Below, piece by piece: positions 19,602-56,500 of a DNA stretch of 64,000 nucleotides. How positions within the stretch are numbered: the stretch's first letter is position 1; every line of letters starts with the position of its first letter. Location of the stretch: assembly GCA_028687545.1 (NCBI GenBank), contig JAQTZZ010000020.1:1-64000 (forward strand), given 5' to 3'. Position numbers and translations under genes: made by a program. This DNA is from Candidatus Wallbacteria bacterium. GTDB lineage: Bacteria > Muiribacteriota > JAQTZZ01. Under the pieces are notes generated by a model. The model saw only the letters and a list, made by a program, of their open reading frames with translations, had not been told where the DNA came from and did no database searches.

Positions 19602-19870
19602 GGCTGTGCTAACCGGGGAGGTAGCGGTGCCCTGTAACTTGCAACCCGCTATAGCAAGGGTGAAGCCTGTTTGAGGCTCGCATTGTTTGGTGCTGCCTCT
19701 GGAAAGTGGCGTTGAAGGCCAGGTCTTGCGCAGCGGAGCCTTGTGAACCCCGTCAGGTCCGGAAGGAAGCAGCGGTAAACAAGTCACTCCGGGTGCCGCA
19801 GGGTTGCCTGGCTGGAGCTGGCTGCCAGGGTTACGACCGGATGGTCCTGTCGAGGGCAGGTGCACGGCCT
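19602..19870 (+). ncRNA. ffs: Signal recognition particle RNA, bacterial large type
   Basis: The 5' part reads GTGCTAACCGGGGAGGTAG followed by CGGTGCCCTGTA, the Alu-domain consensus of long bacterial SRP RNAs. The S domain shows CGTCAGGTCCGGAAGGAAGC with the GGAA tetraloop and the symmetric loop that binds Ffh. The ends pair (GGCTGTGC with GCACGGCC) and a run of eight T residues follows at 19873-19880. At about 269 bases it is the Firmicutes/Thermotoga-like long form and not the 4.5S hairpin of proteobacteria. Ffh is not in this window. Confidence 0.95.
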
Positions 19871-19891
19871 AATTTTTTTTCTGGGGGGCAA

Positions 19892-20824
19892 ATGAAAATT
19901 CTGATCTGCGATCCGATTGCCAAGGAAGCTGTGGAAAAGATGAAACAGAGCGGTTTCGAAGTCTCAGACAAGGGTGGAATCACTCCAGACGAATTACTCA
20001 AGATCATTTCTGACTATGAAATAATGATTGTCCGCTCAGCCACAAAAGTCACTAAGGATGTGATCAATGCCGGCAAGAAGCTCAAAGTGATCTTCAGGGG
20101 CGGTGTGGGCACAGATAATATAGACAAGGAAGCAGCGAAGGCGAACAAGATTGAAGTGCTCAATACCCCGGGCGCCAGCTCGATTTCTGTCGCTGAACTC
20201 GCCATCGGCTACATGTTCGCGATGGCCAGGGAAATCCCCCAGGCCACAGCTTTGATGAAGCAGAGCAAATGGGAAAAGAAAGCCTTCAAAGGCTATGAGC
20301 TTTATCAGAAAACCCTGGGACTTCTGGGGATCGGCCGCATAGGGTCTGAAGTGGCTAAACGCGCCGCAGCCCTTGGCATGAAAGTACTGGCTTATGATCC
20401 ATTTGTTAAAAAGACGGATCTGCCGAATACCAAACTTGTCAGCTGGGAAGAGCTTCTGAAAAATTCAGACTATATCTCCCTGCATCTTCCTTTGACCAAT
20501 GAGACAAAGTATTTCCTGAACAAAGACAAATTCGCGATGATGAAGAAGGGCGTCCGGATCATCCAGTGCGCCCGCGGCGGGATCATCAATGAAAACGATC
20601 TTTATGAGGCAATCAAAGCCGGACAGGTCGCAGGCGCGGCAATAGATGTTTACGAGAAAGAGCCGCCCGAGAACTGGAAGCTGTTTGAGCTTCCTCAGGT
20701 GATCGGAACTCCGCATCTTGGCGCCACGACTGTGGAAGGCCAGTTCCGCGTGGGCATGGAAATGGCTGAAGTGCTGGCCGGGAAATTCGGCAAAGAATGT
20801 GGCTGCAGCTGCGGCTGTAAATAA
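19892..20824 (+). CDS. serA: D-3-phosphoglycerate dehydrogenase-like D-isomer hydroxyacid dehydrogenase
   Basis: A 310-residue 2-hydroxyacid dehydrogenase. Rossmann motif GLLGIGRIGSEVAKRAA, substrate-side residues FRGGVGTDNID, and the catalytic Arg in QCARGGIINE, Glu in YEKEPPE and His in TPHLGATT are all present. Such enzymes oxidise 3-phosphoglycerate as the first step of serine synthesis. It lacks the C-terminal ACT regulatory domain, so the short SerA type or another hydroxyacid specificity is possible. It ends with an odd cysteine tail, CGCSCGCK, a potential metal-binding site. The ATG at 19892 lies 12 bases past the SRP RNA T-run and has GGGGGGCAA upstream; extending further would read into the RNA gene. 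Confidence 0.85.
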   Translation: MKILICDPIAKEAVEKMKQSGFEVSDKGGITPDELLKIISDYEIMIVRSATKVTKDVINAGKKLKVIFRGGVGTDNIDKEAAKANKIEVLNTPGASSISVAELAIGYMFAMAREIPQATALMKQSKWEKKAFKGYELYQKTLGLLGIGRIGSEVAKRAAALGMKVLAYDPFVKKTDLPNTKLVSWEELLKNSDYISLHLPLTNETKYFLNKDKFAMMKKGVRIIQCARGGIINENDLYEAIKAGQVAGAAIDVYEKEPPENWKLFELPQVIGTPHLGATTVEGQFRVGMEMAEVLAGKFGKECGCSCGCK

Positions 20825-25637: not shown

Positions 25638-25678
25638 GATAGTCCCCTCTCTAATGTTGGCTGAATGAAGCCTGAAAA

Positions 25679-26053
25679 TTAGTTGTTCAGTCCGTTTATC
25701 ATTTCTTCTATTGTTTCAGAAAGAGAATCCACTTTGTTTTTCACTATCCAGAAGACCTGGTCAGCATCAACGTCAAAGTAATGATGAGCAATGATGTCTC
25801 TCATTCCTTTCACTCCTGACCAGTCGATATTCGGGTATTTCGGAAGCAGGGTGGAATCAGTGATTTTGTCGATGTTTTTCACGCCTTCACCGACGGCGAT
25901 TAAAAGCATGCAGATGCTGTCAAGTTTTTCAGCTCCGGCTGGTGTGGAAGTAAAGTCTTCTGCTTTAGTGATCGAAATGGCGCGTTTGCTAATCTTGTCC
26001 AGGGCATCACTGATCTGTTTCAGGATTGTCAGGACCAGATCTCTGTCATACAT
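25679..26053 (-). CDS. hepT: HepT-like toxin (HEPN ribonuclease)
   Basis: A 124-residue helical HEPN protein with the catalytic R-x4-H-x-Y motif in MRDIIAHHYFDVD. In MNT-HEPT systems HepT is an RNase toxin whose tyrosine is AMPylated by the partner nucleotidyltransferase, which silences it. Its start overlaps the mntA-like gene by 8 bases, the standard order. Size and motif spacing are normal. It lies 41 bases upstream of the GH94 gene on the same strand, and forms the edge of an accessory island inside the glycan locus. Confidence 0.9.
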   Translation of the reverse strand: MYDRDLVLTILKQISDALDKISKRAISITKAEDFTSTPAGAEKLDSICMLLIAVGEGVKNIDKITDSTLLPKYPNIDWSGVKGMRDIIAHHYFDVDADQVFWIVKNKVDSLSETIEEMINGLNN

Positions 26054-26336
26054 AAAGGCACTCTCTGCCGATTCTTTCTTTCAGAAACTGATTCATGTTT
26101 TCCCGGTAACGGATCAGATCCACACGGCGGTTAGTCCTGTTTTCAAGATCTTCCTTGATGTGGACAAGGGCGAATGCATCGGGTGATTCAGTTTTGACGC
26201 AGATGTCAAGATCACTGTCTTCTCCAGCTTCTTCACGGGCGAAAGAACCGAAAACACCGATTGACAGTATCCCGTACTTTTTGCCAAATTTATTTTTGAA
26301 TTCCCTCAGGATCTCCAGTATCGCTTCTCTGCCCAT
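26046..26336 (-). CDS. mntA: MntA-like minimal nucleotidyltransferase antitoxin
   Basis: A 96-residue minimal nucleotidyltransferase. GSFAREEAGEDSDLDI gives the GSx10DxD motif that binds metal and ATP. MntA AMPylates the tyrosine of HepT and so acts as an enzymatic antitoxin (type VII system). The ATG at 26336 is chosen because GGGGGT lies four bases upstream and the fold starts immediately; upstream in-frame sequence runs into the R1 repeat. The 8-base overlap with hepT ensures coupled synthesis. Confidence 0.9.
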   Translation of the reverse strand: MGREAILEILREFKNKFGKKYGILSIGVFGSFAREEAGEDSDLDICVKTESPDAFALVHIKEDLENRTNRRVDLIRYRENMNQFLKERIGRECLYV

Positions 26337-26430
26337 TGCACCCCCGGCAACACTGCATCGACATTCAGTTTCTACAATATATTTTATCACAGGATTGGGT
26401 AAAGTGCAGTTGCTTTGATACACATACAGG

Positions 26431-26630
26431 CCAAGGGAGGATTTTCGACCCTCCCTTGGCGATCCCTCCCAGCATGGGGACTCCGTCCCCCTGCACCCCC
26501 TTGCGGGGTGGGCCGGGATGGTGCTACTATCAAAGTTCGTTCTTACCATCTGTTTGAGAACAGAATTGATTATCTGACTAAAAGGTTCCAGCGTCTTTAC
26601 CCAGGGTCTGGAGCTACCCTCTCAACCCCT
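26431..26630 (+). repeat. Dispersed repeat R1, copy B (complete)
   Basis: It opens with a hairpin, CCAAGGGAGG paired with CCTCCCTTGG (26431-26459), followed by the GGGGAC-TCC-GTCCCC hairpin, the CCCC-TTGC-GGGG hairpin and the conserved tail ending CCCTCTCAACCCC. It points toward the gene at 26673-27563 and is inverted relative to copy C on that gene's other side. It fills almost the whole 336-base gap between mntA and that gene; no promoter for mntA is clear within it. Confidence 0.75.
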
Positions 26631-26672
26631 AACATTGGTTGGAGCAGCTAAGGAGGATTGAATCGGAATTAA

Positions 26673-27563
26673 TTAATACTCACCAGGTCTTTTGCATCTG
26701 ACATTGTTTTTCGAAGCTAAAGGCAGGATACGGCGCTTGTCCGCATATTTAGCGGATGACCATGGTAAAGATATCGCGGCAGGTGAGAAGCAGATGTAAA
26801 CATCGGCCTGAAATGATGATCCGGGATCACGGGAAACTATCAGATTGACAAAATCATACCTGCCGTCCAATTCGCCTGGAACAGCTCCCGCAACAGGCGG
26901 TTGCACAGTCAACAATCCGATGTCGTCACCGTTTGCAGGGTTACCCTGGCTGTCTATGCCGGTTGCTGCAGAATCTTTACTTAAAGCGTGAAATTTCACC
27001 ATCGGGATACTATTGTTATCGATATGTCCACTAAATTCAAAGTCGTTTGAGCTGGCCGCAGTAGGAGTCGCCGGTTTTTTACTGAAATAGATGGTGATAA
27101 CATCGCCAGTGTCGATCAGTTTGTTTCCATTGGCATCAACAGTGAGCGCGAAATCCAAGATTGCAAGCGGCGGAAGAAAGGAAACCGTTGTATTGTCTTG
27201 ATTGGCCTGGCTTGAATAATCATTCAAGTCAATTTTACCATCCGGTCCGGCCGAGAGAATGACGCCGTCAGAAGGGATGATTGTATAGTCATTGCCCCAT
27301 TTATCTTTCTGCAATTCTGGTAGATACTTAGGAACAAGGTTCTCCAGATTTTCGCAGGATCTGCCTTCGCTTTGATGATATCTAATCAATGAGTCACGAA
27401 TATGGTTCATTGATTGAATACTTGCGCTGTTTTTTTCATTATTCAAGTTTACCAATGTGCCAATTAATACAATCAGAAAAACGTAAAGTAAAACAAGAAA
27501 AAAAGGAACAAACAGTAAGTATTCTTTAGGGAATTTCTTCAAGAAATTTACCGGGTTAAACAA
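26673..27563 (-). CDS. Membrane-anchored protein with GspG-like pseudopilin periplasmic segment
   Basis: A 296-residue protein. A basic N-terminus is followed by one long membrane segment (about 16-38). Then comes a helix (MNHIRDSLIRYHQSEGRSCE) and a segment LQKDKWGNDYTIIPSDG with LSAGPDGKIDLNDY, which resembles the C-terminal part of type II secretion GspG pseudopilins (DPWGNxY and SxGPDGK). The N-terminal prepilin motif (G followed by FTLIE) is absent, so PilD would not process it. The remaining 180 residues are a beta-rich domain with Asp/Asn-rich loops (DANGNKLIDTGD) suggestive of calcium binding. It lies between two inverted R1 repeats. Function is unknown. Confidence 0.6.
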   Translation of the reverse strand: MFNPVNFLKKFPKEYLLFVPFFLVLLYVFLIVLIGTLVNLNNEKNSASIQSMNHIRDSLIRYHQSEGRSCENLENLVPKYLPELQKDKWGNDYTIIPSDGVILSAGPDGKIDLNDYSSQANQDNTTVSFLPPLAILDFALTVDANGNKLIDTGDVITIYFSKKPATPTAASSNDFEFSGHIDNNSIPMVKFHALSKDSAATGIDSQGNPANGDDIGLLTVQPPVAGAVPGELDGRYDFVNLIVSRDPGSSFQADVYICFSPAAISLPWSSAKYADKRRILPLASKNNVRCKRPGEY

Positions 27564-27681
27564 GGGTGATTACCTGACTATAATTTTCTAAAGGATAACA
27601 TTAAAGGGACATTATTCGAAGAAGATCATTTAAATTTTGTGCACCCATTTTCTTATCTTGTCAGACGCACAAGCATATGGC

Positions 27682-27880
27682 GGGGTTGAGAGGGTTGAAC
27701 CAAACCTTGGGTAAAGACGCACAACCTTGTTTTGTTGCGAAGATCATTTCTGTTATCAAACAAATGGCAATGGCGTTCTTTGACAGAGGCTGAATCCTTC
27801 AACTCCCCGCAAGGGGGTTCTGGGGGACAGAGTCCCCCGGATTGGAGGGATTGTCAAGGGGGGATGACGTCCCCCCTTGA
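27682..27880 (-). repeat. Dispersed repeat R1, copy C (inverted)
   Basis: On the minus strand it carries the same order as copy B: an opening hairpin TCAAGGGGGGA paired with TCCCCCCTTGA (27853-27880), GGGGGAC-TCT-GTCCCCC, CCCC-TTGC-GGGG, TTTGATAACAGAAATGAT and a tail ending CCCTCTCAACCCC. With copy B it brackets the pseudopilin-like gene as an inverted pair. Most of the 478-base gap 27564-28041 is made of this copy and the adjacent R2 copy; nothing else is recognised there. Confidence 0.75.
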
Positions 27881-27930
27881 CTGATTGTTGTATGCCTTCC
27901 AACGGGGACAAGCCGTAATTTGGGTAAAGA

Positions 27931-27993
27931 TAAGGGTCCCCTTCGGGGATTAAGAAGCTGTAAATCTTCACTGCGTTCAGATTAACAGCTTCT
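27931..27993 (-). repeat. Dispersed hairpin repeat R2, copy next to R1-C
   Basis: Arms 27953-27967 and 27979-27993 pair around TCACTGCGTTC. A CCCC-TTC-GGGG hairpin (27938-27948) accompanies them, as at 295-420. It is separated from R1-C by about 50 bases and shares its strand, as R1-A and R2-A do, although the order of the two modules is reversed between the sites. Confidence 0.65.
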
Positions 27994-28041
27994 AAAGAAC
28001 AACATGTCCCCGATCTATGCGAGTGGACCCCCGGATGCTGC

Positions 28042-28863
28042 TCAGCCTTTAACGGCTCCTGCGGCGATGCCCTTGATGTAGTGCTTCTGTGCCATCAGGA
28101 AGACTGCGATTACAGGGAGGATTACCACGACCGAGCCGGCCATCAGCAGGCCCCATTCGGTGTTATACTGTCCGTTGAGATTGGCAAGAGCCACTGGAAG
28201 CGTGTATTTTCCTTCGTCCAGCATCACGATCAGGGGCCAGAGGAATTCATTCCAGGAGCCCAGGAAGCTGAAGATCAGGATCGTGGCCAGCACAGGCCTG
28301 CAGAGCGGCAGCATGATTTTCCAGTAAATCCCGTATTCGCTGCACCCGTCGATGCGGGCCGCTTCCAGGAGCGATTCAGGGATTTCGGACATGAACTGGC
28401 GCAGCATGAAGATGGAGAATACGCTGGCGCTGCCTGGTATGATCAGGCCGAGATAGGAATTGAGCAGACCCATGTATTTCAAAATGATGAAAACAGGCAT
28501 CATAGTCACCTGGCCAGGCACCATCATGGTGATCAGAAGCAATGTGAAAAGCCGTTCCCTGCCGCGGAAATACATCTTGGCAAAGGCAAAGGCAGCCATG
28601 GAGTTGATCAGAAGCGACATTATGGTCAGTCCCAGGGCTACAGTCAGGCTGTTGAGAAACTGCCTGGTGAAAGCCATGGCTCCAAACAGCTGCCTGTAAT
28701 GCTCGAGCGTGGGGTGTTTGGGGATCAGGGATGGAATTTTAGAAAAGATTTCCGAGGTTTCCTTGAAAGAGGTAGAGACCATGAAGATCAGCGGCAGCAG
28801 CGTGGCTGTCACGCAGACCAGGATCAGGATATGCAGGGCGATCGTTTCAAAGACTTTTTTCAA
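28042..28863 (-). CDS. ABC sugar transporter permease, MalG type (CUT1)
   Basis: A 273-residue permease with six membrane helices. The EAA loop ESLLEAARIDGCSEYGIYWK (about 163-182), which contacts the ATPase, continues IMLPLCRPVL, as in MalG-like carbohydrate permeases. MalG-type proteins form the inner-membrane channel with a MalF-type partner, encoded here by the preceding fusion gene (7-base gap). No ATP-binding subunit is encoded in the window; CUT1 systems often share an MsmK-like ATPase encoded elsewhere. It is the last gene of the three-gene operon starting with the glucanase. Confidence 0.92.
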   Translation of the reverse strand: MKKVFETIALHILILVCVTATLLPLIFMVSTSFKETSEIFSKIPSLIPKHPTLEHYRQLFGAMAFTRQFLNSLTVALGLTIMSLLINSMAAFAFAKMYFRGRERLFTLLLITMMVPGQVTMMPVFIILKYMGLLNSYLGLIIPGSASVFSIFMLRQFMSEIPESLLEAARIDGCSEYGIYWKIMLPLCRPVLATILIFSFLGSWNEFLWPLIVMLDEGKYTLPVALANLNGQYNTEWGLLMAGSVVVILPVIAVFLMAQKHYIKGIAAGAVKG

Positions 28864-28870
28864 ATCACAC

Positions 28871-31066
28871 CTACCAGTCGTTTTTCTTGGAGAACTTGAA
28901 CTGCAGCACAGTGAAGGCGCAGATCAGGGCGCAGAGCACATAGGCGACAGATGATGCATAGCCGAGATTGTAGAACTTGAATCCGTGATTGTACATGTAT
29001 AAAACCACGGACATGGTGCTGTTGAGCGGACCGCCTTCTGTCATCACATAGGGTTCAGTGAAAAACTGCAGGTATCCGATGGTGGTCATCACCAGCACGA
29101 AAACCATGGTGCGCGAAAGCATGGGCAGAGTGATCCTGAAAAACTGCTGCAGGCGGCTCGCTCCGTCGATATCTGCAGCTTCGTATATTTCAGTGGGGAT
29201 CGACTGAAGGGCTGCGATAAAAATGATCATGTTGTAGCCGAAACCCTTCCAGACCGACATCATGATCAGAGAAAACAGCGCCAGAGCCGGTCCGGAAAGC
29301 CAGTGGAAAGGACCGAAACCCAGCAATCCGCAGAACCAGTTGAAGATTCCGTATTCCTCGTTGTACAGCCAGCGCCAGACTACTGCGACTGCCACCATGG
29401 TGGTGATCACCGGCAGGAAAAGAGAGGTGCGGAAAAAAGGCTTCAGCCTGACTACACCCTGATTGATGGCAACAGCCATGATCAGAGCTGTGATAATGTT
29501 TAGCGGCACTCCGGTTACAGCAAAAAGCAAAGTGTTTCTGAGCGAGATCCAGAAAACAGGGTCACTGAACAGGGCAATGTAATTTTGGAGCCCTATGAAA
29601 ACCACCCGGCCAGGATTGTTAACCGCCGAAACGTTCCAGTTGGTCAGGCTCATGATGAATGAAGCAGCGAGCGGGATGAAGAGAAATATTGTCAGGATCG
29701 CGATCGCAGGAAAGAGGAAGATCCAGGCCTGTTTTGATCCTGGAGTCTCACCGAGCCTGGGTTTGAGGTAGAAAAAGGCTGAACCGAAGAGCAGGGCGGA
29801 CAGGATGGAAACTAGGAAAGTCTTGAATCCAGTGGATTGTTCTGCAGGCCTGTCTGAGAGCATCTTATTTACTGACACACTTGCATCGTGCAAAGCTTCC
29901 CCTGCGCTCTGTTTGTCGTAAATGACTTTTTCCATGGTCTGGGAAATCAGGGAGGCGATCCTCTCCCATTCAGGAATGGCAGGCGGGGATTTGGTGCAGT
30001 TGAGCTGTTCCCTGAATGCCTGCAGGAGTCCGTTGCTCTTGATGTTCTGGTCTTCCCAGGCCGGGATTGAGGCAGGCAGATTGCGGGAGACTGCATACCA
30101 TTTTGCCTGAACTTCAGGCCTGCTTAGAAAATCGATGAATTTCCAGGCATCAGCCTTGTGCTTCGAATCCTTGAAGATCACCAGATTACAGCCGCCGATA
30201 AAGGAAGTGTGGTCTTTTTTAACAGGCATGGGGGCGGTTTTCCAGAGTCCGTCGATCCCCGGCTTGTTTCTGGAAATTTCGGAAACCATCCAGGGGCCTG
30301 AGATGAACATCGGGTAATAACAGGATTCGAAGGCGTTAAAAAGGTCCATGTCCTTGGCTGATTCCCTCGGAGTGGCACCTTTTTCGAAAAAAGACTTGTA
30401 AAAGGAAAGGGCTTCTATGGCTTCAGGGCCGTCCAGCCTGCAGATTGTGTCGCCTGTTTCCATGATGCTGCCACCGTTCTGCCAGAGGAACAATAGATAC
30501 GGCTGCCAGTCATTGATGGGAAGTGAGATCGCGTATCCGGGAAGGTTGTTTTGTTTTTTATAGGACAAGATCGCGTCAGTGGCCTGTGACAGTTCATCCC
30601 AGGTTTTTGGAAAATTCGAAATCCCGGCCTTCTGGAAAAGATCCTCACGATAGAAATAGACGCGGGTGTCAACTGTCCAGGGGACTCCATACACTCCGTC
30701 AGTCCTGCGGCAGCTCTCCAGGGAACCAGGAAAGAAGTTTTCTAAAACCGTGGTTTTAGACGCTTTCAGATAATCATCCAGCCGCTCCAGGGCATTCATG
30801 GAATTGAGTTCGGACATCCAGGTGGTGCCCATCTGGCAGACATCAGGAGGAATGCCGCCCACTACGGAGGTGACGATTTTCTCATGCGCTCCTGTCCAGG
30901 GAATGGACTGGGTCTTGACCCTGATGTCCGGGTACTCTTTTTCAAAATCTGCAGTCATCGCGGAAATCAGTTTTCCTTCTGCGCCCATCGCCCAGACCGT
31001 GATTTCACCGGCAGAGCAGAGACCCGCCCAAAGCAGGCAGAATAAGATTGTCAGCAGGTTTTTCAT
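28871..31066 (-). CDS. Fusion of extracellular solute-binding protein and MalF-type permease
   Basis: A 731-residue single-chain fusion. Residues 1-19 are a signal peptide. Residues 20-405 are a family-1 sugar-binding protein (ITVWAMGAEGKL, GIPPDVCQMGTTWMSELN, GVPWTVDTRVYFYREDLF). Residues 414-434 form an extra membrane helix. Residues 447-731 are a MalF-like permease with six helices and the EAA loop EIYEAADIDGASRLQQFFRI (about 627-646). The extra helix brings the chain back to the cytoplasm so that the permease keeps its normal N-in topology. The ATG overlaps the glucanase stop as ATGA. SBP-permease fusions are well known in glycine-betaine and glutamine importers, but look unusual for CUT1 sugar systems. 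Confidence 0.9.
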   Translation of the reverse strand: MKNLLTILFCLLWAGLCSAGEITVWAMGAEGKLISAMTADFEKEYPDIRVKTQSIPWTGAHEKIVTSVVGGIPPDVCQMGTTWMSELNSMNALERLDDYLKASKTTVLENFFPGSLESCRRTDGVYGVPWTVDTRVYFYREDLFQKAGISNFPKTWDELSQATDAILSYKKQNNLPGYAISLPINDWQPYLLFLWQNGGSIMETGDTICRLDGPEAIEALSFYKSFFEKGATPRESAKDMDLFNAFESCYYPMFISGPWMVSEISRNKPGIDGLWKTAPMPVKKDHTSFIGGCNLVIFKDSKHKADAWKFIDFLSRPEVQAKWYAVSRNLPASIPAWEDQNIKSNGLLQAFREQLNCTKSPPAIPEWERIASLISQTMEKVIYDKQSAGEALHDASVSVNKMLSDRPAEQSTGFKTFLVSILSALLFGSAFFYLKPRLGETPGSKQAWIFLFPAIAILTIFLFIPLAASFIMSLTNWNVSAVNNPGRVVFIGLQNYIALFSDPVFWISLRNTLLFAVTGVPLNIITALIMAVAINQGVVRLKPFFRTSLFLPVITTMVAVAVVWRWLYNEEYGIFNWFCGLLGFGPFHWLSGPALALFSLIMMSVWKGFGYNMIIFIAALQSIPTEIYEAADIDGASRLQQFFRITLPMLSRTMVFVLVMTTIGYLQFFTEPYVMTEGGPLNSTMSVVLYMYNHGFKFYNLGYASSVAYVLCALICAFTVLQFKFSKKNDW

Positions 31067-32979
31067 TTTATGGCTTCTGTCTGGAAATTAATTCTTCCCA
31101 GCAATGTGCAGGGCCTGGGGAAAAACCAGTTCATTTTTCCTTCCGAATTTTTATCCAGGTTGTGGAATCCGATGGTCAGAGCGATTCCGTTTTCCTGCAT
31201 CTGCGTTTCAGTTCTGGGAATCGCGAGGATTGCCTCATACCCGTCAGCAGATTTCCGGTATGCTTTGGTGATATTAAGCTGTACCTGATGAAAAAAGTCC
31301 CGCACCCTGAGATCGGTAAGGGTCTGATCCGGTGAAACAATAATCTGGAAATCTTTCGGTCCGCACCAGGTAAGGCCATTGTCCTCTGTATCCAGGAAAA
31401 TTTCCAGGCAGTCGTCGAACTGCATTTCTTCAGTATCATGCACACTGACCAGTTCCTGATCGCGGACCCGGACCCGGATCAGAAGTTGCTTATCTGTATA
31501 TGCGATCTTAGCATCGCAATAACAGTCCGGGTGTGAGAGTGAACCTGATTCCAGGTCTGCCTGAGTCAGCCTGAAATGAGCGATTCCCTGGCTGTTCCAT
31601 TCAGGCGAATCAAAGTTCAGAAAATCCTGACCTCTGAAGCTGTGGGTTGTAAGTTCAGGCCTTTTTTCCCTGGAGTACACTTTGGAGTGGGTTCTGGTAA
31701 GTGACTGAGAGAGAAATCCTGACTTTCCTGGTTTGAAGCCGACTTTCTGCATCGCCTGGGTAATGTAGGCGCATTTCATGAAATCATGCCAGATCAGTCC
31801 AGTGCGGTAGTTCTCGATCATCAGGAGGATTGGTCCCTGATTGATGGCATAGGCATAATCAGCAAACCAGTTACGGTCCAGGTTGAATGAATCTGTGAAG
31901 CCGAAACGGCCCCACATCTTTTCGCTCTGGCTGGACAGGATGTTTCTGAGCACTTTGATGGATTCGGCAGGAGTAAAAACGATCGATCCGCCTGCTGCTG
32001 CAGGAGCTACGGTCCCGTCGCAGACTGCAACGCCTGGAGGAGCGCCGTAAGCTGTGTATCCGTCAGGACCGAGACAGGCGGTCAGACCCCAGCAGTTTTC
32101 GTTGAAAGTGTGAAATGTGCCTGAATTGTCGAGGCAGTATCTGCGGTTCGCCAGAGTGGCTTTTACGGAGTTAGTGAAATAATCTGCATACTTGTCATGG
32201 ATGTTTTTGAAATCCACCCAGACATGGGAATACTGATGGGTGAAAAGCGGAGGGCTGGAAATCAGTTCGAATTCACCGTATTTTTCCACCAGACGGGCAA
32301 AGCCATCCCAGCATGTGGGAGGAATCGGATGTGTGGGGCTGCCGATGGCCATCAGGTACATGATCAGGGATTCGCAATACATGTTCCAGTATGAACTGAT
32401 GAATCCTTTTTCCGGCCGCCAGCCCATGCAGAGGATGTTTTTACCGTTCGTCATCCACTGCCAGTCTACTCTGCGGTAGATTGAGTCTGCCAGATCCCGG
32501 ATTTCTCCGCTTCCATAATACTCGGCTGCGTGCAGAGCTCCGGCGAGAAAAAGAGCGGTGTCTATGGAAGAAATTTCGCAAGTCCAGACGCGTTCTCCGC
32601 TCTTCATGTCCACGAAATGATAGAAAAAGCCATGCTCATTGCGGAAGTCTTCCCAGAAAAATCTGAGAGTGTTCAGGGTAATCCGTTCAGCTTCAGTTCT
32701 GTCGATCCAGCCACGGTCGATACCGACGATCAGGGAGCTGAGAAAGAAGCCTGTCCCTGCTACTGTAGCCGGGGAAGAATCAAAATCCGGTTTTCCGAAA
32801 TTGCCAGTGCGATCCATCACCAGTCCGTTTTCCATATTTACACATTCAAGAAAATAGTTAAAGGTGCGGTGCTGGACCATGTCCAGGAAAAGATCATCAT
32901 TGTCAGGTATTAATGCTGCAGACACAGAAAAAGCTCCCAGAAAAGCCGTCAGGGCAAAACATATGCGTGAAATAGACAT
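31063..32979 (-). CDS. Secreted GH144-like glucanase (glycoamylase fold) with CBM9-like C-terminal domain
   Basis: A 638-residue exported enzyme (signal peptide about 1-21). Residues 25-450 match the Glycoamylase family (PF10091) that founded GH144: QHRTFNYFLECV, SSPATVAGTGFFLSSLIVG, TCEISSIDTALFLAG, FTHQYSHVWVDF and GLTACLGPDGYTAYGAPPG. Characterised GH144 members are endo- or exo-acting beta-1,2-glucanases; PF10091 is broader, so specificity is inferred. The last about 170 residues (from ISxx near DCYCDAKIAYTD to FLDTEDNG and the end) resemble a CBM9/DOMON sugar-binding domain. GGAG precedes the ATG. It leads the operon with the SBP-permease fusion, consistent with external cleavage followed by import. 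Confidence 0.8.
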   Translation of the reverse strand: MSISRICFALTAFLGAFSVSAALIPDNDDLFLDMVQHRTFNYFLECVNMENGLVMDRTGNFGKPDFDSSPATVAGTGFFLSSLIVGIDRGWIDRTEAERITLNTLRFFWEDFRNEHGFFYHFVDMKSGERVWTCEISSIDTALFLAGALHAAEYYGSGEIRDLADSIYRRVDWQWMTNGKNILCMGWRPEKGFISSYWNMYCESLIMYLMAIGSPTHPIPPTCWDGFARLVEKYGEFELISSPPLFTHQYSHVWVDFKNIHDKYADYFTNSVKATLANRRYCLDNSGTFHTFNENCWGLTACLGPDGYTAYGAPPGVAVCDGTVAPAAAGGSIVFTPAESIKVLRNILSSQSEKMWGRFGFTDSFNLDRNWFADYAYAINQGPILLMIENYRTGLIWHDFMKCAYITQAMQKVGFKPGKSGFLSQSLTRTHSKVYSREKRPELTTHSFRGQDFLNFDSPEWNSQGIAHFRLTQADLESGSLSHPDCYCDAKIAYTDKQLLIRVRVRDQELVSVHDTEEMQFDDCLEIFLDTEDNGLTWCGPKDFQIIVSPDQTLTDLRVRDFFHQVQLNITKAYRKSADGYEAILAIPRTETQMQENGIALTIGFHNLDKNSEGKMNWFFPRPCTLLGRINFQTEAIK

Positions 32980-47500: not shown

Positions 47501-50500
47501 TTATTGCAATACTGCCAATTTAGCGCTCGCCTGAAGGCGCTGTTCACCAGAAACAGCTTCAAGCTTGATCAGATAAGTGCCGTTGGACACTTTTCTTCCA
47601 CTGCTGTTTCGCAGATCCCAGGTCATGAAGTTTGAACCTGCGGTGATGTCTCCGCTGAAGGTCTTTACTCTTTTGCCTGAAGCATCGTATATTTTGATGG
47701 TTACAGAATCAGCAGCTGCGCCGAGTGTGTAGTGAATCATCGTGACGTCACCCGCGGGATTGGGTACCATGTAAACTTTGCTCAGGGTGAATCCTGCGGC
47801 GACCCGCAGTGGAGCTTTGACAACGCTCTCGTTCCCGAACAGGTCTCTGACTTTCAGTGACAGGCTGTAATCTCCGCTCTTCAATGTCATGCCTTCCGAG
47901 TCGAGAGTCAGGATGCCTGTTTCAGAGTTGTAGGAAGGCTTCAGCGGCAGGTTGTCCGCCGTCAGGCTGATGGAACCCGGGTCGATGCCGACACCGTTGT
48001 CAGAGATCTTGAATTTCAACACTGAAAGTCCGGTGACGAACTCCTTTAATTCACCATCCTGCGACAGTGACGGAGGAGTATTGTCCTGGAAATATCCGAT
48101 AGACGACAGATATCCGACTTCAGCGGTGATTGTGCTGCCGGAAACTTTTTCATGCAGCCATTTCCATTTTCCATTGAGATCCAGGTAGAACAGTCCAGCT
48201 TTCTCAACAGGCTGCTGGTTAAGCGAAAAGATGAGCGGCAGTTCCGGTTTCAGTCCGTTGCCGATCAGGTAGGTTGGACTGACTGATACCAGTTCGCCGT
48301 CTGTGCTGGAAGGAGCGGAAAGTTTGGCGGGATCAGAGGAGACTCCCCCCTGAGGAAGCAGGAACAGGAGCGTCTGATCCTTGAAAGCCCTTGCCGGATA
48401 GGTCAGGCCTGCCAGGCGGTCAGGGGAGCTCAGGCTTCCGCCGGTCGCTCTGGTCTTGACGACAGTGAACGAAACCTCAGTACTGCCTGCGAGATCATCG
48501 TGGTCAATGCCTGAAGCTGCAATCACGCCGTCTCCAAGGTAATAATCCTCGGTGCTGACTTTCAGCGTTCCTTTGTAATAAGATCCTGTCAACTGGGAAA
48601 GAGTGACCTTGACCGATTCTTTGTTGTTCTGGGTGACCCAGATTTCCGGAATTGAAGCGGATTTAAGGGTTTCTGAAGGCTGGCAGACCAGCATCAGCTG
48701 GTCGTTGACCAGAGGGGCGAAGAAGTAACCTATGGCAAAGCCTGGGTGCAGGTTGGAGGTGAATTGCAGATTATTGAGATTGCCATACACATCCTTGCAA
48801 TTGCTGCCATAGATTTCTATGCTGCCGCCGAATGTGGTGTCGCTGTAATTGATTGTGCCTTCGCCCACATAGAGATTTCCGTTGTAGCTGATCTGAGTCA
48901 GCGGGTATCTGGTACCGGAATGGGCCGATGAAGCGAACAGGATCGAAGGTGTTTGAGAAGTGTCCATGTCTGAACTGAAGCGCACTTTTAACTGGACCTT
49001 CCATTTCTTGCTATAGGTGGCCTGCACGATCGAATCTACGGAAATGATCTGAGTTACATTGGCTACGATTCTCAGGCTGTTGGAGGAGATGTAATTGACC
49101 ACATCGCCAGAGGCTGCACTGATAGACGCCGGATAGTTTTTATTATCCAGCAGGACTCCCAGTGCGGTACCTGAGGGAGCGTCGATTGCGGAAGGCGTGC
49201 TCATGGCGAAGATAATTCTGACAACTGAGGCTGATGTGCTCTCAAGGGTATCGCCCAGCAGGATTTCGAAGCTGCCCCGGCCGCTCTGGTAGTTGACCAC
49301 GTATGTGTGCCCGGTAAGAGCCGCTTCACTGGTGACATAGGTGTACTGGGTCGAGCCTACGCTCAGATAGGAGATCACTTCCGATGAGGAAGCGGCTTTG
49401 AAATGATAAGTACTGGCAGGAGTGACGATTATCTTGTTGAGTCCGTTGTCATTGCTCTGAACCGTGGGTAGAATTGCCAGATTGAAGGTGATATCCGCAG
49501 AAAGCGGGACAGTGTTTGGTGTCACCTCTGCCATTACGCTTGTCGCATTGGCCGAAACCTTGACAGTCCGGTCTGTTGTTCCGTCACCGTTATAATCCTT
49601 GGCTTGCGGGGCGATCACTGAAATCGTGTCTCCTGAGTTCCTGATCTGGGATGGGAAGTCGAGACTTGCATACTTCTGAGAAGGAGCGACCAGGGTGATG
49701 GTTGTTTGAACTTCGAAAGTAGCGCCGGTCATGAAATCACCTGTTTTGAAGCTCAGGGTATGGCTGGAAGAGTTATAAACCGGGGGTGAGACCGGGTCAT
49801 AGTAATTGTCATGCAGGGAGTTTCTATAGACCGCGACAGTCGGTGCCGGACTGCTCTGATAAGTGAACTGAGACGGGATAGTGATTTCCACGGAATCGAT
49901 GCCTGCAAAGGATGAGCCGGGATTTGCGTCGAAACTGATATAGTAGGTATAGGTCTTCGTTTGAGTAGTCAGGGCATAACCCGGCGTGATCCAGGCATAG
50001 GCAGTGTTGGGCTTAATGATTGATTTCACGCCTTTCAGGCTGTTGCTGTTGTTGGAATAATTCGGGTCTACGTCGCCTGGCACGCTGATTGTGACTGGCA
50101 GAGATCCGGTGATCCCGCTGTTGTAAACATCAGCTGCGAAATTGAACTGGCCCTGTGCCAGTGCAGTAATCGGGAACCAGACCTGGAAAAGGCGGTCGCT
50201 GTAAGTTGAGCCGTAAACAGAGCCCAGTGTAATTTCCAGCGTGTTTCCGCTTGCGGATGCCAGAGCTTCACCGGCTGCAGGTGTACCGGAATAGATTGTG
50301 TTGAGGTTGACTCCATTGATTGCTATAGTAATCTCGGTAGTTCCCATGGTTGCATTGGAAGTATAGATTTTGAAGCTCTTGATGCCGGCATGGGTGACAG
50401 GGATGGAGGGCTTGAAAGTCAGGGTCACTATTTCCCTGCTGTTGACCGTGATGTTTGCAGGGGCGGCTGTGTTATATGGATTGTTGATTTCCAGGGTTCC

Positions 50501-53500
50501 GCCTGCGATTACTCCCGCTACAGCGATGTTGCTGCTGCCTCCTGAACGGATGTTTGTGACGAGTTTAGGAGAGATGATGGAAGGATTATCGACCCAGAGA
50601 GAGAGAGTCTGGCCCGTCGGGTAGTCGAGCACAGAAATTCCTCCGGTTCTGGGAGGCTGAGCCTTGAAATTGATGGTGACGATACGGCTGTCCGTGATAG
50701 GTGTAGTGAGGGTGACTTCCTTGCTGTTGATGATTGCCACAGAGTCTGTCCCGATTCCGCTTACCGCTATGGCCTCAACCGTAAGATTCAGATGATTGGG
50801 CAGAGACAGCTTGAACTTCTGAATACCTGCATCGCTGCCTCCGGTAAGGGTGGCGTCGACCTGCACCTGATAGTGATGATAGGAAATGGCGTCCAGCGGA
50901 GCTACCAGATTTGGTGTGACTGAATAAGCCAGGTTGGTTACCAGGCGTTTTGTGTTCAACTGCTGCTGGACAAAGAGTCCGTTATAAACGCAGGGGACAG
51001 GGCTGGAAGCCTGGACATTGTCTACATACAGGTTGAAAGGCAGGACATCGTTGGCTGTGGATGTGGTATGGCCGCTGAAATAGATTTCCACTGTGGCTTT
51101 CCTGAGTGTGCTGGTGGTGATGGCATTCTTAAGCCTGATTTCCATTGTGGAACCGCTGACTGAAGCGCTCAGCACTTCTACAGTGGACGAATCAACGATC
51201 AGCTGATTCAGGACCGGAGAACTCAGTTTATTATTGGAAGGGAGGATCATGAGTAATCTGTCGACTCCTGTATTGAGAGCATCGACTTCCAGAGTCGTGG
51301 TATACCTGAGAGTTACGTCGCTGTCGGTGGATACATTGAATTTTCCGGTCGGGACTCCGTCCATCAGCACTTCCAGTGTCGTCATGGCAGTGGAATTGGC
51401 CGGATAGCCGGACTTGATCTCAACTGTGCCTGCAGGGACGAATTCCATATTCTGGGAATTGGCGATGCCGCAGACCAGCTCGCCTGTGACCTCACCTCTG
51501 GTGGCGAGCATTTTAAAGGCGATTTCAACCGGCATCTGGCTGACTGAGACTGCGTTGTCCAGCGTGATTTCTATGGTATGTGCACCCGGGAACTGAGCGC
51601 TGTTGTAACTGAATCCAACAGTCTGGCTGGCGACCTTGACGCTGGTCAGGGAGAATGCTTCGAATGAGTCCGGGTCCTGCGGGGAAACGAAGTAGAGGCG
51701 GAAGAAGTTGATACCCGGGCTGCCTGCAGGGATCAGCGGGCTTACAGTAGCCGTGAGATCGATTTTATTGACTCTGTAGGGATCAGGAGTCATCACTGTT
51801 GGAGTGAGTGCGAGTGAGCCTCCGCCTGCAGACTGCATGATATAGAGAGTCTGCGTGTTGGCATTATTCGGATTGGAGTCAGCGTTGCCGACCGCAGTCT
51901 GCATGTTGATCTGAGGATAATTCATGCCTGGATAGCAGAAGTCGATCCAGGATTTCTGAGCCTTGCCAGTCAGGTTTTCAGGGCCGCTGTCCACATAGAA
52001 AGTGGCCTCAATGGTCTGCGAGAGCTTGAGAGGTTCCGAATCCGAGAAAATCAATTCCGCAGTGGAATTATAGGCGCTGGTTTCCCAGGTGCAGCTCAGG
52101 CCGCTCCAGCTGCTTCCTCCAACCAGTGTTCCTCCGATTCTGATTTCCTTAGTGCCCTTGATTTTAAGCCCGTCCAGCAGGATTACAGCCCTGTTGACCC
52201 AGGCATTGTTGGTGATGCTGATGGTCGGATAGATGTAATAAGTGACTTCTGCAGAAGTCCGGTTGGGCCAGACGAGATAGGGGTTGATTTCAGCCACTGC
52301 CGAGTCTGCCGGTTTCCTGGTCTGAATGTTCAGCCTGCTGAAAATATAGATAGGGGTGTTACCGTCATTGTCTACGCCGTCGATTTCACCTGCGACTGCC
52401 TTTACTTCACAGCTGGGATTAGTATAACCTCCAGAATAGGATGAAGTAGTGACATTGTCGGCCTTTACTTCCACAGTAACTCCTGCAGGCGCGTCTACAG
52501 CGCTCTTCGCAGTGACTGTGAAGAATACTTCCAGAGTCTTGACCAGGTCTGCTGCATCCAGGTTGTTTCCGCCATACAGCGACAAGGTTGCTGATGTGGG
52601 AGTAGTCAGGTCCACTGAAATTGTGAGCGGATGTGTAACGCTTGCCTGGTCTATGTAATCCATGCTGAAATTGCTGGGGGTGGACGGCAGGTTATTGATG
52701 ATCAGTTTTTCAATGCCTGAGTCGTAAAAGTTGAATTTCGGTGCTAAGGACACTTTCATCTGGAAATCGCGTCCAGGGTAAACGATACGCGGGTTGACTT
52801 CAGCTTCCAGGGTAGTGACAGGCTGGAGCCAGCGCACCTCAGCCGTGGCTGCAGGGCTGGTTTCACTGTTGCCGAATGAGAAGGGATTTCCAATGGTGTC
52901 GCTGCCTGTGACCCAGAACTTTACTATCCCGGATCTGCCGATATTACCGCAACCCGCAGCCAGATTCACGGCTTTGACAGTCACTGAAATCGTCCCCTGA
53001 TTGCCTGAAAATGACATCAGGGACGCGGAAAGTGAATTGGACTCTCCGAACGCATCTTTCCAGTAAAGTCTGGTCGAAGTGGTGTCAAACTGATCAGGTT
53101 CATAGATCACAAAGTCCGCTTCCACACTGTCTGCATTGCTGTGCACAAGGTCGTTGGTATGGTATTTTAAAAACCAGTTTACAGAATCTATGTTGTGGCA
53201 CAAGCTCGGATTAGCAGGATCATAGTAATCCTTGATCACGAAGCTGCTGAGCACAGGAGCCTTGAAGTCGATTTCCTTCTTGTAAAGGGAAACGTCTGAA
53301 GTGTCCAGTGTGTTCCAGGCCATGTCTGTAACAGATACTGATGTGGTGTCTCCCACCACGATTTCATAAGTGGCGTCTGCAAGAGCCTGTTTCAAGGTAA
53401 CAGTCATGGTCCGGTTGCTGATGGTATAACCCTGGAATTTTGTGGAAGTACCTGCAAAGATGTCCACATTCTTTGTGTCATAGAAAAGATGCAGGTTGGG

Positions 53501-56500
53501 ATTGACGGACGCCGGTGTGGCTGAGCTGCGTATATTTTCGCTGAAAGTGAGGTAAATCAGCCTGTTGTTCTTGTCATAGACAACTGTCTCCAGGGTGGGA
53601 CGGATGTTGTCGAAGATGAAACCTTTGTAGTCTGTAGTCACCATTTTGTTCAAGGCTTTGTCATACGCATTGGCGACCTCGACTGTCACGGCGCCTGCTG
53701 CAAGCGTGTAGACCGGAGCAGTTGTTTCAACGGTTCCGGAGCGGTAAGTGTCGTTCAAGCGGGCGGTAGTGACAAATGTTCCTTCGGATGTTGAGAACCG
53801 GACCACGCTGAGGCCGTCGTCAATGGAAATTTCAGGGGTAAAACTCGTTTCCATGGTATCAGAAAAGATTATTTCTGCAGTCAGTTTCCCGATTCCGATG
53901 TAATCCAGCGAGTTATTGAGCAGACGGCCGTTGTGGTACATCTTGAAGGTAGAGACTGTCGGAGCACCAATGTTCACTTCATAAGTGTAACCTGAGGTGA
54001 CTGCAGTCATCACATTGCCTGCCACGTCATAGGCTCTGGAGATCTGCAACGCCAGGTTGCCCTGCATTGAAGGCACTATGCTCAGCTCACCCGTATATTT
54101 TTCATAGACATGGCCATTGATGACTTCAGCAGTATAGCCTTTGTTGGTAAGCGTATAACTTCCAAGCATCACAGTCGGCACTCTTGTGTAATCCATTCCA
54201 TATTCGACTGTATCTGCTGCTTCTGAAGAGTCATAGAAATAGATGGTGAAGACTGCAGTCTCCTGGGTCAGAATGTTGCCGGAAATGGAAGGTGTGACTG
54301 ACACAGCCCAGGTGTCGGGAGCTACTATGGGAGCAATATTGTCCAGATAGACTTCCAGAGTTTTCATTGTCAGGTTTTCAGCTGTATCAAAACCATAGAA
54401 CTGCACTTCGTGCGAGCCTGTGGTCGCTGTATTGGTCGAATGGATCGTCAATGTGCCCTTGTAAATCCCAAGCGGGCTCTCGGCCAGCTCAATCGTGTCT
54501 GTCTGCTTGCTGTCCGGCCCATTGGAATTGACAGTGAAGTTGGCGACTTCCACTGATCTCAGGTGCGCTTCGCTGCTGGCCCAGAAATGCATGGTGTCCG
54601 TATTTTTGTAAATAAGATCCTCGCCTGTCATAGCGATTTCCAGGGTTGGAGATTTGAAATCTGTGTAAAAGAGTTTGGACAGATTGATTTCCATGGTATT
54701 GCCTGCAGCGTCGTGACCGAGCATCACTTCCAGGGAAAGCGTGGCTTCGGAAGTAAAGATGGTACCGTCGATCGTAACGCTTCCTGTCCAGGTTTTGCAG
54801 TCGTCGCTCCAGATGATGTTGTCTTTCACTTCCAGGGTCGCCTTGGGATTGATTTGAAGCAGAAATACTTCAGGCGTCAAAGGAAGCGGTGGCGTCAGTG
54901 TACTTTCTGTAGTCATAGCTTCTGTGAAAGTGATACCGAAAGTCACTATTTCACCGGAACGGAACCAGTCCGGAGAAGTCGGTTTGATGCTGGAGATTAT
55001 TGGTTTTGTAACATCCACTGGATACTTATGTGATGTGTCCGGATCAGTTTCCAACGGGTTCCCGTTTTTGTCGTGAGCTCCTGAGATCGACAGCTCTTTG
55101 GTGCCGTCGCCGAGCGAGCTTTCGATCGTATAGACTCCGATCCAGGAAGTCTCGGAAGTGGTCCAGCCTTTGTTTGCACCGACAGCAACTACGGTTTTAC
55201 CGCCGAATTTCACAGTCAGGGTTTCGCTGGTTTTCATGATTTCAGTGAAAACTATTTCAAAGGTGACTTTCTGGTTGAGAATGAAAGGCCCGTCAGCAGG
55301 CAGATCTACTCCAAGAGAATGATATGGCTGTGAGGGAGTTGTAACAACTTCTAATGTAGGAGGGGTAGCGTCAATGGAATATTGGAAAGTCGCAGGATCA
55401 GGGGTCTGCAGATTGCCTGCTGTGTCCTTAGCGCCGGAAACCGAGAGTTCCTTGGTGCCATTGAAACTTTCGTCAATCGTGATCTGACCGTTCCATTTCT
55501 TTTTATCTCCAGACCAGCCCGGATTGGCGGTCAGGGCTTGCCCGTTCAGTGTAATTGTAGGCACAATCGCTATATCCATGGTATCGCTGAACCGGACTTC
55601 AAAAGTCGTCAGCCCGAAATGCAGCGGACCTGGAGGAGTCGGCGAGACTTCCACTGTAGGCTGACTGGTATCGACTGCGAAAGTGGTTTCATATGTGTCT
55701 GTGGAAAGAGTTTTTCCTTCCAGCCAGTGCCAGACCTGGTCGCGTGCGCCGATGATCAGCAGTTTGCAGTCTCCGTTCCAGCCTGCAGGTATGGCTGATG
55801 CGGCTGTCCCTTTCCAGGTAAGACTGTCAGCCTGCCAGCCTCCGCTGGACGGATTTACTAAAATCTCAGGGCTGCTGCTGAATACGAGCGATACTTTCAT
55901 TTCAGCAGTTGTACTCATTTTTGTCCCATTGGGATCGCTGAAAACTATGGTGAAAGATTCCGATGCTCCCCCGATGAAAGGTGCTGCCGGAAGAGGTGTG
56001 ACGCTTGCCACTGTAGGATTAGAGGTGTCGAGCACATGCGTAGTGGTATCATTTGGCCTGGCATTTCCTGCTATATCTTTGACTCCTCCTACGGTTAACG
56101 TGGAAGTTCCGTTAAATGCGTCATGCGGGACTGTGATTTCTCCTGACCAGATATTGTAAGTATAGTTATTGATCCCGTCATTGTATGTTCCTGTTCCGAA
56201 GTAGGTAACAGTGATCGCGCCTACACCTGAAAGATTCGCTACTACCACTGAAGAAGTGTCGATCCCGGTGTTGTACGGGCTTGCACTGTAAGTAGATCCG
56301 CCGATATTGTCGTCTTTGTAATAGATTTTCAGGCAGAGCACTTCATCGCTGAATGGCGAATTGTGATTTGTGTCTTTTGCTCTGAGGAGGAAGGCTGAGC
56401 AATAAGGGACAGTGGCGTCAAGAGTGATGTCGATAGTGGTGTTCTTACCGTTTCCATAGTAAAAGTAAACTCTGTAAGTTCCGCTTTCCCTGCCTGTAGT

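What the first reader, a model, noticed from the sequence alone, without database searches (positions are those of the whole stretch)
28871..31066. CUT1 sugar-binding protein fused to its MalF-type permease through an extra helix
A signal peptide and full solute-binding domain are joined by one additional membrane helix to a six-helix permease. The extra helix is what the topology needs to keep the permease N-terminus inside. SBP-TMD fusions are established for amino-acid and betaine importers; for carbohydrate CUT1 transporters this arrangement appears uncommon.
Basis: partly seen in the sequence, partly recalled or inferred. Interest (0 to 1): 0.6.

Follow-up and report, generated by a model that had tools for sequence, protein, structure and literature searches.

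The report
Sugar-binding protein fused to its permease
In a little-known bacterial phylum the protein that catches beta-1,2-glucan fragments outside the cell membrane is built into the membrane channel that imports them, held by one extra membrane helix that seems to replace the fatty anchor its relatives use.

Summary
Window 28871-31066 (-) is one open frame of 731 aa: Sec/SPI signal peptide, a complete CUT1 solute-binding domain, one extra helix (412-437) and a six-helix MalF/UgpA-type permease with a canonical EAA motif. Sequencing error is excluded: 49 distinct uninterrupted fused ORFs were found, in 29 of 37 genomes of the window's phylum plus Lindowbacteria and Elusimicrobiota, and every one has the extra helix. 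The binding domain belongs to the sophorooligosaccharide (beta-1,2-glucan) binding clade (Lin1841). Neighbouring genes agree: GH144 endo-beta-1,2-glucanase, MalG, a GH94 of cyclic-glucan-synthase type and a GH35 beta-1,2-glucosyltransferase homologue. So this is a known kind of beta-1,2-glucan uptake locus with an unusual importer. New here: (i) the permease tree rejects a single origin, so SBP-MalF fusion arose at least twice; (ii) the 16 separate sister binding proteins all look like lipoproteins, as do the genome's own separate sugar-binding proteins, while 18 of 19 fused members of this clade lack the lipobox. Fusion looks like an exchange of lipid anchor for permease anchor, and a MalF/MalG heterodimer would carry one tethered SBP, unlike OpuA or GlnPQ. 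No fusions were seen in samples of Pseudomonadota, Bacillota or Gemmatimonadota. Function is inferred, not assayed.

The parts
28871..31066 (-). SBP-MalF fusion gene (731 aa), CUT1 importer subunit
   Evidence: one open frame; Pfam SBP_bac_1 + BPD_transp_1; fused orthologues; AF2 model
31010..31066 (-). signal peptide, residues 1-19 (MKNLLTILFCLLWAGLCSA), SPI-type, no usable lipobox
   Evidence: sequence; motif scan against relatives; cleavage site inferred by motif only
29855..31009 (-). solute-binding domain, residues 20-404, sophorooligosaccharide-binding clade
   Evidence: PDB matches 3uor 1.7e-83 and Lin1841 5ysb 4.8e-77; tree; fold match TM 0.92 to 5ysb
29756..29833 (-). extra anchoring helix, residues 412-437, joined to the last SBP helix by about 7 residues
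   Evidence: AF2 helix 412-437; hydropathy 2.09 over 17 aa, net charge +2 on the following side
28880..29737 (-). six-helix MalF/UgpA-type permease domain, residues 444-729
   Evidence: NCBIfam UgpA 1.7e-38, MalF 1e-27; AF2 helices
29168..29194 (-). EAA coupling helix, residues 625-633, within YEAADIDGASRLQQFFRITLPML
   Evidence: sequence; AF2 helix 625-633
28042..28863 (-). MalG/UgpE-type partner permease (273 aa, TTG start), 7 bases after the fusion gene
   Evidence: Pfam and NCBIfam; conserved next to the fusion in relatives
31063..32979 (-). secreted GH144 endo-beta-1,2-glucanase homologue with CBM9-like domain; stop overlaps the fusion's ATG (ATGA)
   Evidence: PF10091 + PF06452; best PDB XcSGL 8xul 3e-77; clan residues E203, F246, Y308 kept; the only PF10091 gene in the genome
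23331..25637 (-). [quoted passage not shown]
   Evidence: directly after MalG in L028-L031 and L033
20861..23230 (-). GH35 beta-1,2-glucosyltransferase (IaSGT) homologue
   Evidence: best PDB 7vkw 8.7e-92; active-site region AELQSG and LCNEIG kept

Best explanation
The gene encodes a CUT1 (MalFGK2-type) ABC importer subunit in which the sophorooligosaccharide-binding protein is covalently part of the MalF-type permease. Proposed working: the secreted GH144 enzyme cuts beta-1,2-glucan; the N-terminal binding domain, outside the inner membrane, captures the oligosaccharides; a short linker and one out-to-in helix hold it directly above the channel; it hands the sugar to a MalF/MalG heterodimer driven by a MalK-type ATPase encoded elsewhere in the genome; in the cytoplasm the GH94 and GH35 enzymes process the sugar. 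One tethered SBP per transporter replaces the lipid-anchored, diffusing SBP of its relatives. Shown: architecture, conservation, phylogeny, operon context, helix-fusion coupling, absence of the lipobox. Inferred: substrate, topology in vivo, 1:1 stoichiometry, the identity of the ATPase.
For: Architecture and model. Fused orthologues. SBP within the sophorooligosaccharide-binding clade: 5ysb Lin1841 sister to the fused clade (support 79), whole clade support 98; closest folds 3uor and 5ysb/5ysd. Operon GH144-(SBP-MalF)-MalG-GH94 conserved in Riflebacteria/Wallbacteria loci, and GH144 beside the separate sister genes in most sister loci. A comparable published cluster exists in Ignavibacterium album with GH144, GH94, GH35 IaSGT and an SBP homologue (PMC8861115). 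All 49 fused linkers hydrophobic. Lipobox in 16/16 separate sisters against 1/19 fused clade members. MalK-type OB domains at C3 and C33. Omp85 present, so probably a diderm cell.
Against: No biochemical data. The GH94 is not closest to 1,2-beta-oligoglucan phosphorylase (5h3z only 2.1e-4; that 5h3z is such an enzyme is from memory), so the fate of the sugar in the cell is less certain. Several fused clade relatives (L035, L036, L038, L041, L042) have no GH144 within the DNA fetched, so not every member need bind the same glycan. Ligand-contact residues were not compared (the Lin1841 paper is not held). In this genome about 2.4 kb of other genes separate MalG from GH94. Signal-peptide type was judged by motif only.
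Confidence: 0.82

Rival explanations
1. Sequencing or assembly error joined two adjacent genes (lost stop or frameshift).
For: Separate adjacent SBP and MalF genes exist in sister groups, so a lost stop could mimic a fusion; one Gemmatimonadota relative has the two genes in one frame with a single stop between.
Against: 49 distinct fused ORFs from many assemblies; each has an extra hydrophobic helix that the separate genes lack, which a lost stop could not create.
Confidence: 0.01
2. Same architecture and tethering, but the substrate is another beta-glucan or glucoside oligosaccharide rather than beta-1,2-glucan.
For: The second-tier SBP folds are beta-glycoside binders such as 7c6x and CbpB; GH94 has several specificities; some fused relatives lack GH144 nearby.
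Against: SBP, GH144, GH94 and GH35 each have a beta-1,2-glucan-acting protein as best or near-best solved relative; GH144 clan residues are intact.
Confidence: 0.12
3. The fusion is a precursor that is cleaved between SBP and permease; the extra helix is then a C-terminal membrane anchor of the SBP and the mature importer has separate subunits.
For: Linker sequences vary freely across clades; two SBPs inside fused clades end in a hydrophobic tail with the permease in another frame or after a stop (L109, L022/L083).
Against: The segment joining SBP to helix is short and ordered in the model; no conserved cleavage motif was seen in the linkers; the split cases may be frameshifts.
Confidence: 0.05

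Closest known systems
Listeria innocua Lin1841 sophorooligosaccharide-binding protein (5ysb/5ysd) and its ABC importer
   Same: binding-domain sequence (4.8e-77), fold (TM 0.92) and clade
   Different: in the solved and published system the SBP is a separate polypeptide; here it is fused to MalF through a helix and has no lipobox
Ignavibacterium album beta-1,2-glucan gene cluster (PMC8861115)
   Same: GH144, GH94 of cyclic-glucan-synthase type, GH35 IaSGT and a sophorooligosaccharide SBP homologue together
   Different: separate SBP and MalF genes in the Ignavibacteriota relatives examined here
OpuA (OpuABC) betaine importer
   Same: [quoted passage not shown] PMC11065425)
   Different: OpuA has two OpuABC chains and therefore two SBDs, and its SBD follows the TMD (general knowledge); here the SBP is N-terminal, the family is CUT1 and the permease is a MalF/MalG heterodimer, so one SBP per complex is expected
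GlnPQ amino-acid importer
   Same: SBDs N-terminal to the permease in one chain (PMC8025302)
   Different: two tandem SBDs, amino-acid family
E. coli MalEFGK2 / UgpBAEC (CUT1)
   Same: permease pair with EAA motifs, SBP fold
   Different: separate SBP; E. coli MalF has extra N-terminal helices and a P2 loop instead of an SBP (general knowledge)

Membership tests
CUT1 ABC importer (MalFGK2/UgpBAEC type) | CUT1 SBP (SBP_bac_1/8 fold) | tested here: met
CUT1 ABC importer (MalFGK2/UgpBAEC type) | two different BPD_transp_1 permeases (MalF and MalG types) with EAA motifs | tested here: met
   sequences
CUT1 ABC importer (MalFGK2/UgpBAEC type) | MalK-type ATPase with OB domain | tested here: inconclusive
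   none in the operon; two in the genome at C3 and C33; which one is used is unknown
Sophorooligosaccharide-binding protein (Lin1841 type) | phylogenetic placement with Lin1841 | tested here: met
   clade support 98; sister to the fused clade, support 79
Sophorooligosaccharide-binding protein (Lin1841 type) | binds Sop3-5 | not testable with these tools
   needs a binding assay; ligand-contact residues not compared because the paper is not held
GH144 endo-beta-1,2-glucanase (neighbour 31063-32979) | PF10091 domain and the SGL-clan residues E239, F286, Y367 of XcSGL | tested here: met
   E203, F246, Y308 aligned
SBP-fused importers of OpuA/GlnPQ type | SBD in the same chain as the permease | tested here: met
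SBP-fused importers of OpuA/GlnPQ type | betaine or amino-acid importer family | tested here: not met
   both halves are CUT1 sugar type; it works like them but is not a member

The most novel reading that the evidence does not exclude
In this phylum and its associates, sugar importers repeatedly exchanged a lipid-anchored binding protein for one built into the permease (at least two independent fusions, each with a new out-to-in helix), giving CUT1 importers that work with one tethered SBP per transporter in diderm cells.
Probability: 0.65. Interest if true: 0.5.

Novelty: new variant of a known kind. Interest (0 to 1): 0.42.

Why it matters
The well-studied SBP-fused importers carry two or four binding domains per complex. 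A fused MalF with a separate MalG should give one tethered SBP on an asymmetric CUT1 importer, the family whose mechanism (MalFGK2) is best understood. That offers a natural test of how local SBP concentration, stoichiometry and lipid anchoring affect sugar import, and of why some diderm bacteria tether their SBPs at all. It also identifies a beta-1,2-glucan uptake system in lineages known almost only from metagenomes.

Tried and rejected
Sequencing error: rejected by 49 distinct fused relatives. Reading 'open_frame_aa' of the genome search as proof of fusion: rejected, because the tool reads through stops and high-GC frames are long; the Gemmatimonadota candidates turned out to be separate genes. 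A single origin of all fused proteins: rejected by the permease tree (p-AU 6.7e-5); the SBP tree does not reject it (p 0.12), so 'at least two origins' rests on the permease half. Comparison of ligand-contact residues with Lin1841: the paper is not held. Literature searches for CUT1 SBP-permease fusions found no description in the held library; subscription journals are mostly missing, and one search was swamped by unrelated words, so this is weak evidence of novelty. The second structure job was not used.

Full report
Observation. Window 28871-31066 on the minus strand is one open frame of 731 aa from ATG to stop. Pfam places SBP_bac_1 at 32-321 and BPD_transp_1 at 528-718 in the same protein; NCBIfam best matches are UgpA and, further down, MalF for the permease half. 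The AlphaFold2 model is confident (pLDDT 92, pTM 0.86): SBP 20-404, a separate helix 412-437, and six permease helices from 444 to 729. About seven residues separate the last SBP helix from the extra helix. The first 19 residues read as an SPI signal peptide ending CSA|GE; the cysteine does not sit in a proper lipobox.

It is not an artefact. The nearest relative (61% identical) has the same full-length fusion, and a whole-genome search of the window's phylum returned many more. Retrieving DNA and checking open frames with profiles built here gave 64 fused ORFs, 49 distinct. They come from 29 of the 37 genomes of the phylum held here, plus Lindowbacteria and Elusimicrobia. Named records in the public collection are Candidatus Wallbacteria, Riflebacteria, Lindowbacteria and Elusimicrobia. 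The genome's own other CUT1 systems are unfused.

The extra helix goes with fusion. Every distinct fused protein has a hydrophobic stretch between the two halves (17-residue mean Kyte-Doolittle 1.55 to 3.2, median 2.55), with more positive charge after it than before it on average. Separate SBPs have no such tail, except L109 and L022/L083, which lie inside fused clades and may be split or frameshifted copies. This is what topology demands: the SBP is outside, the permease must start inside.

Origins. Trees of the SBP half and the permease half agree on the main groups: the window's fused clade (A) is sister to a clade of separate SBP and MalF genes from Bacteroidota, Ignavibacteriota, KSB1, Marinimicrobia, Gemmatimonadota and Krumholzibacteriota; two other fused groups (B and C) lie elsewhere. 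Forcing all fused permeases into one clade is rejected (p-AU 6.7e-5); for the SBP half it is not (p 0.12). At least two fusions is the supported count. These are quick trees with some long branches.

Lipid anchor exchanged. All 16 separate sister SBPs have a lipobox cysteine just before the mature domain; only 1 of 19 fused clade A members shows a possible one (Fisher p 4e-9, which ignores shared ancestry and so describes the contrast rather than tests it). The separate SBPs of the window's own genome also show lipoprotein-like ends (..VTGCGG, FIAGCGG, ITGCGG; judged by eye for two of the three). Fusion therefore seems to replace a lipid anchor. Omp85 proteins in the genome indicate an outer membrane, and SBPs of Gram-negative bacteria are described as typically soluble (PMC9732360).

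What it transports. The SBP's closest solved relatives are 3uor (X. citri 'MalE') and the Listeria sophorooligosaccharide-binding protein Lin1841; in the tree Lin1841 is sister to the fused clade (79) inside a clade of support 98; the model matches 5ysb at TM 0.92. Upstream, overlapping by four bases, is a secreted GH144 homologue with a CBM9-like domain, nearest to XcSGL, with the three residues that define the clan. [quoted passage not shown] The order GH144, fusion, MalG, GH94 is conserved in L029, L030, L031 and L033, and L028 shows the same order as far as its contig reaches. A cluster of the same content is published for Ignavibacterium album (PMC8861115). The locus itself is therefore a known kind.

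Rarity. With the fused protein as query, stop-free matches across both halves were found in 7 of 150 Elusimicrobiota genomes at 46-52% identity, plus three more distant ones confirmed as fused frames, 2 of 198 Bacteroidota (not checked further), and none in 299 Pseudomonadota, 200 Bacillota or 200 Gemmatimonadota. Only the best few candidates per genome were scored in the large samples, so distant fusions could be missed.

Mechanism. Most likely a standard CUT1 cycle with a captive SBP: capture, docking through a short tether, transfer to a MalF/MalG channel, ATP hydrolysis by a MalK encoded elsewhere (two candidates). OpuA offers the precedent for an anchoring helix and an 11-residue linker (PMC11065425), but has two SBDs per complex; here a heterodimer should have one. 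Stoichiometry, topology and substrate are inferred.

Noticed in passing
window 25638-28041: About 2.4 kb lies between MalG and GH94, which are 14 bases apart in the nearest relative (L028). It holds a HepT/MNT-type toxin-antitoxin pair (25679-26053 PF01934, 26046-26549 PF01909) and an ORF of 296 aa without Pfam match whose start looks pseudopilin-like; imperfect inverted repeats flank that ORF (26591-26629 / 27682-27720, 87%), which suggests an insertion.
   Followed up: partly
window 19604-19867 (+): Bacterial large SRP RNA (RF01854, 187.7 bits) overlaps the first bases of the listed ORF 19706-20824; the 2-hydroxyacid dehydrogenase match starts at about residue 62-65, so the true start of that gene is probably downstream.
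   Followed up: no
PDB 3uor, loci L039, L043-L058: The X. citri protein named MalE falls among the separate sophorooligosaccharide-binding relatives that mostly sit beside GH144 (support 99 with L057, 100 for the clade), so its maltose name may be wrong.
   Followed up: partly
L022/L083 (G012) and L109 (G034): SBPs inside fused clades that end in a hydrophobic tail with the permease in another frame or after a stop: split genes or frameshifts; could be natural fission intermediates.
   Followed up: no
window 47501-58096 (-): Giant ORF of 3531 aa with an MG2-like stretch and a C-terminal FlgD_ig / Por_Secre_tail match, suggesting a secreted or surface protein.
   Followed up: no
L133-L141 (Gemmatimonadota): CUT1 permeases with an additional N-terminal hydrophobic helix ahead of the permease, next to separate SBPs; not SBP fusions.
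   Followed up: partly
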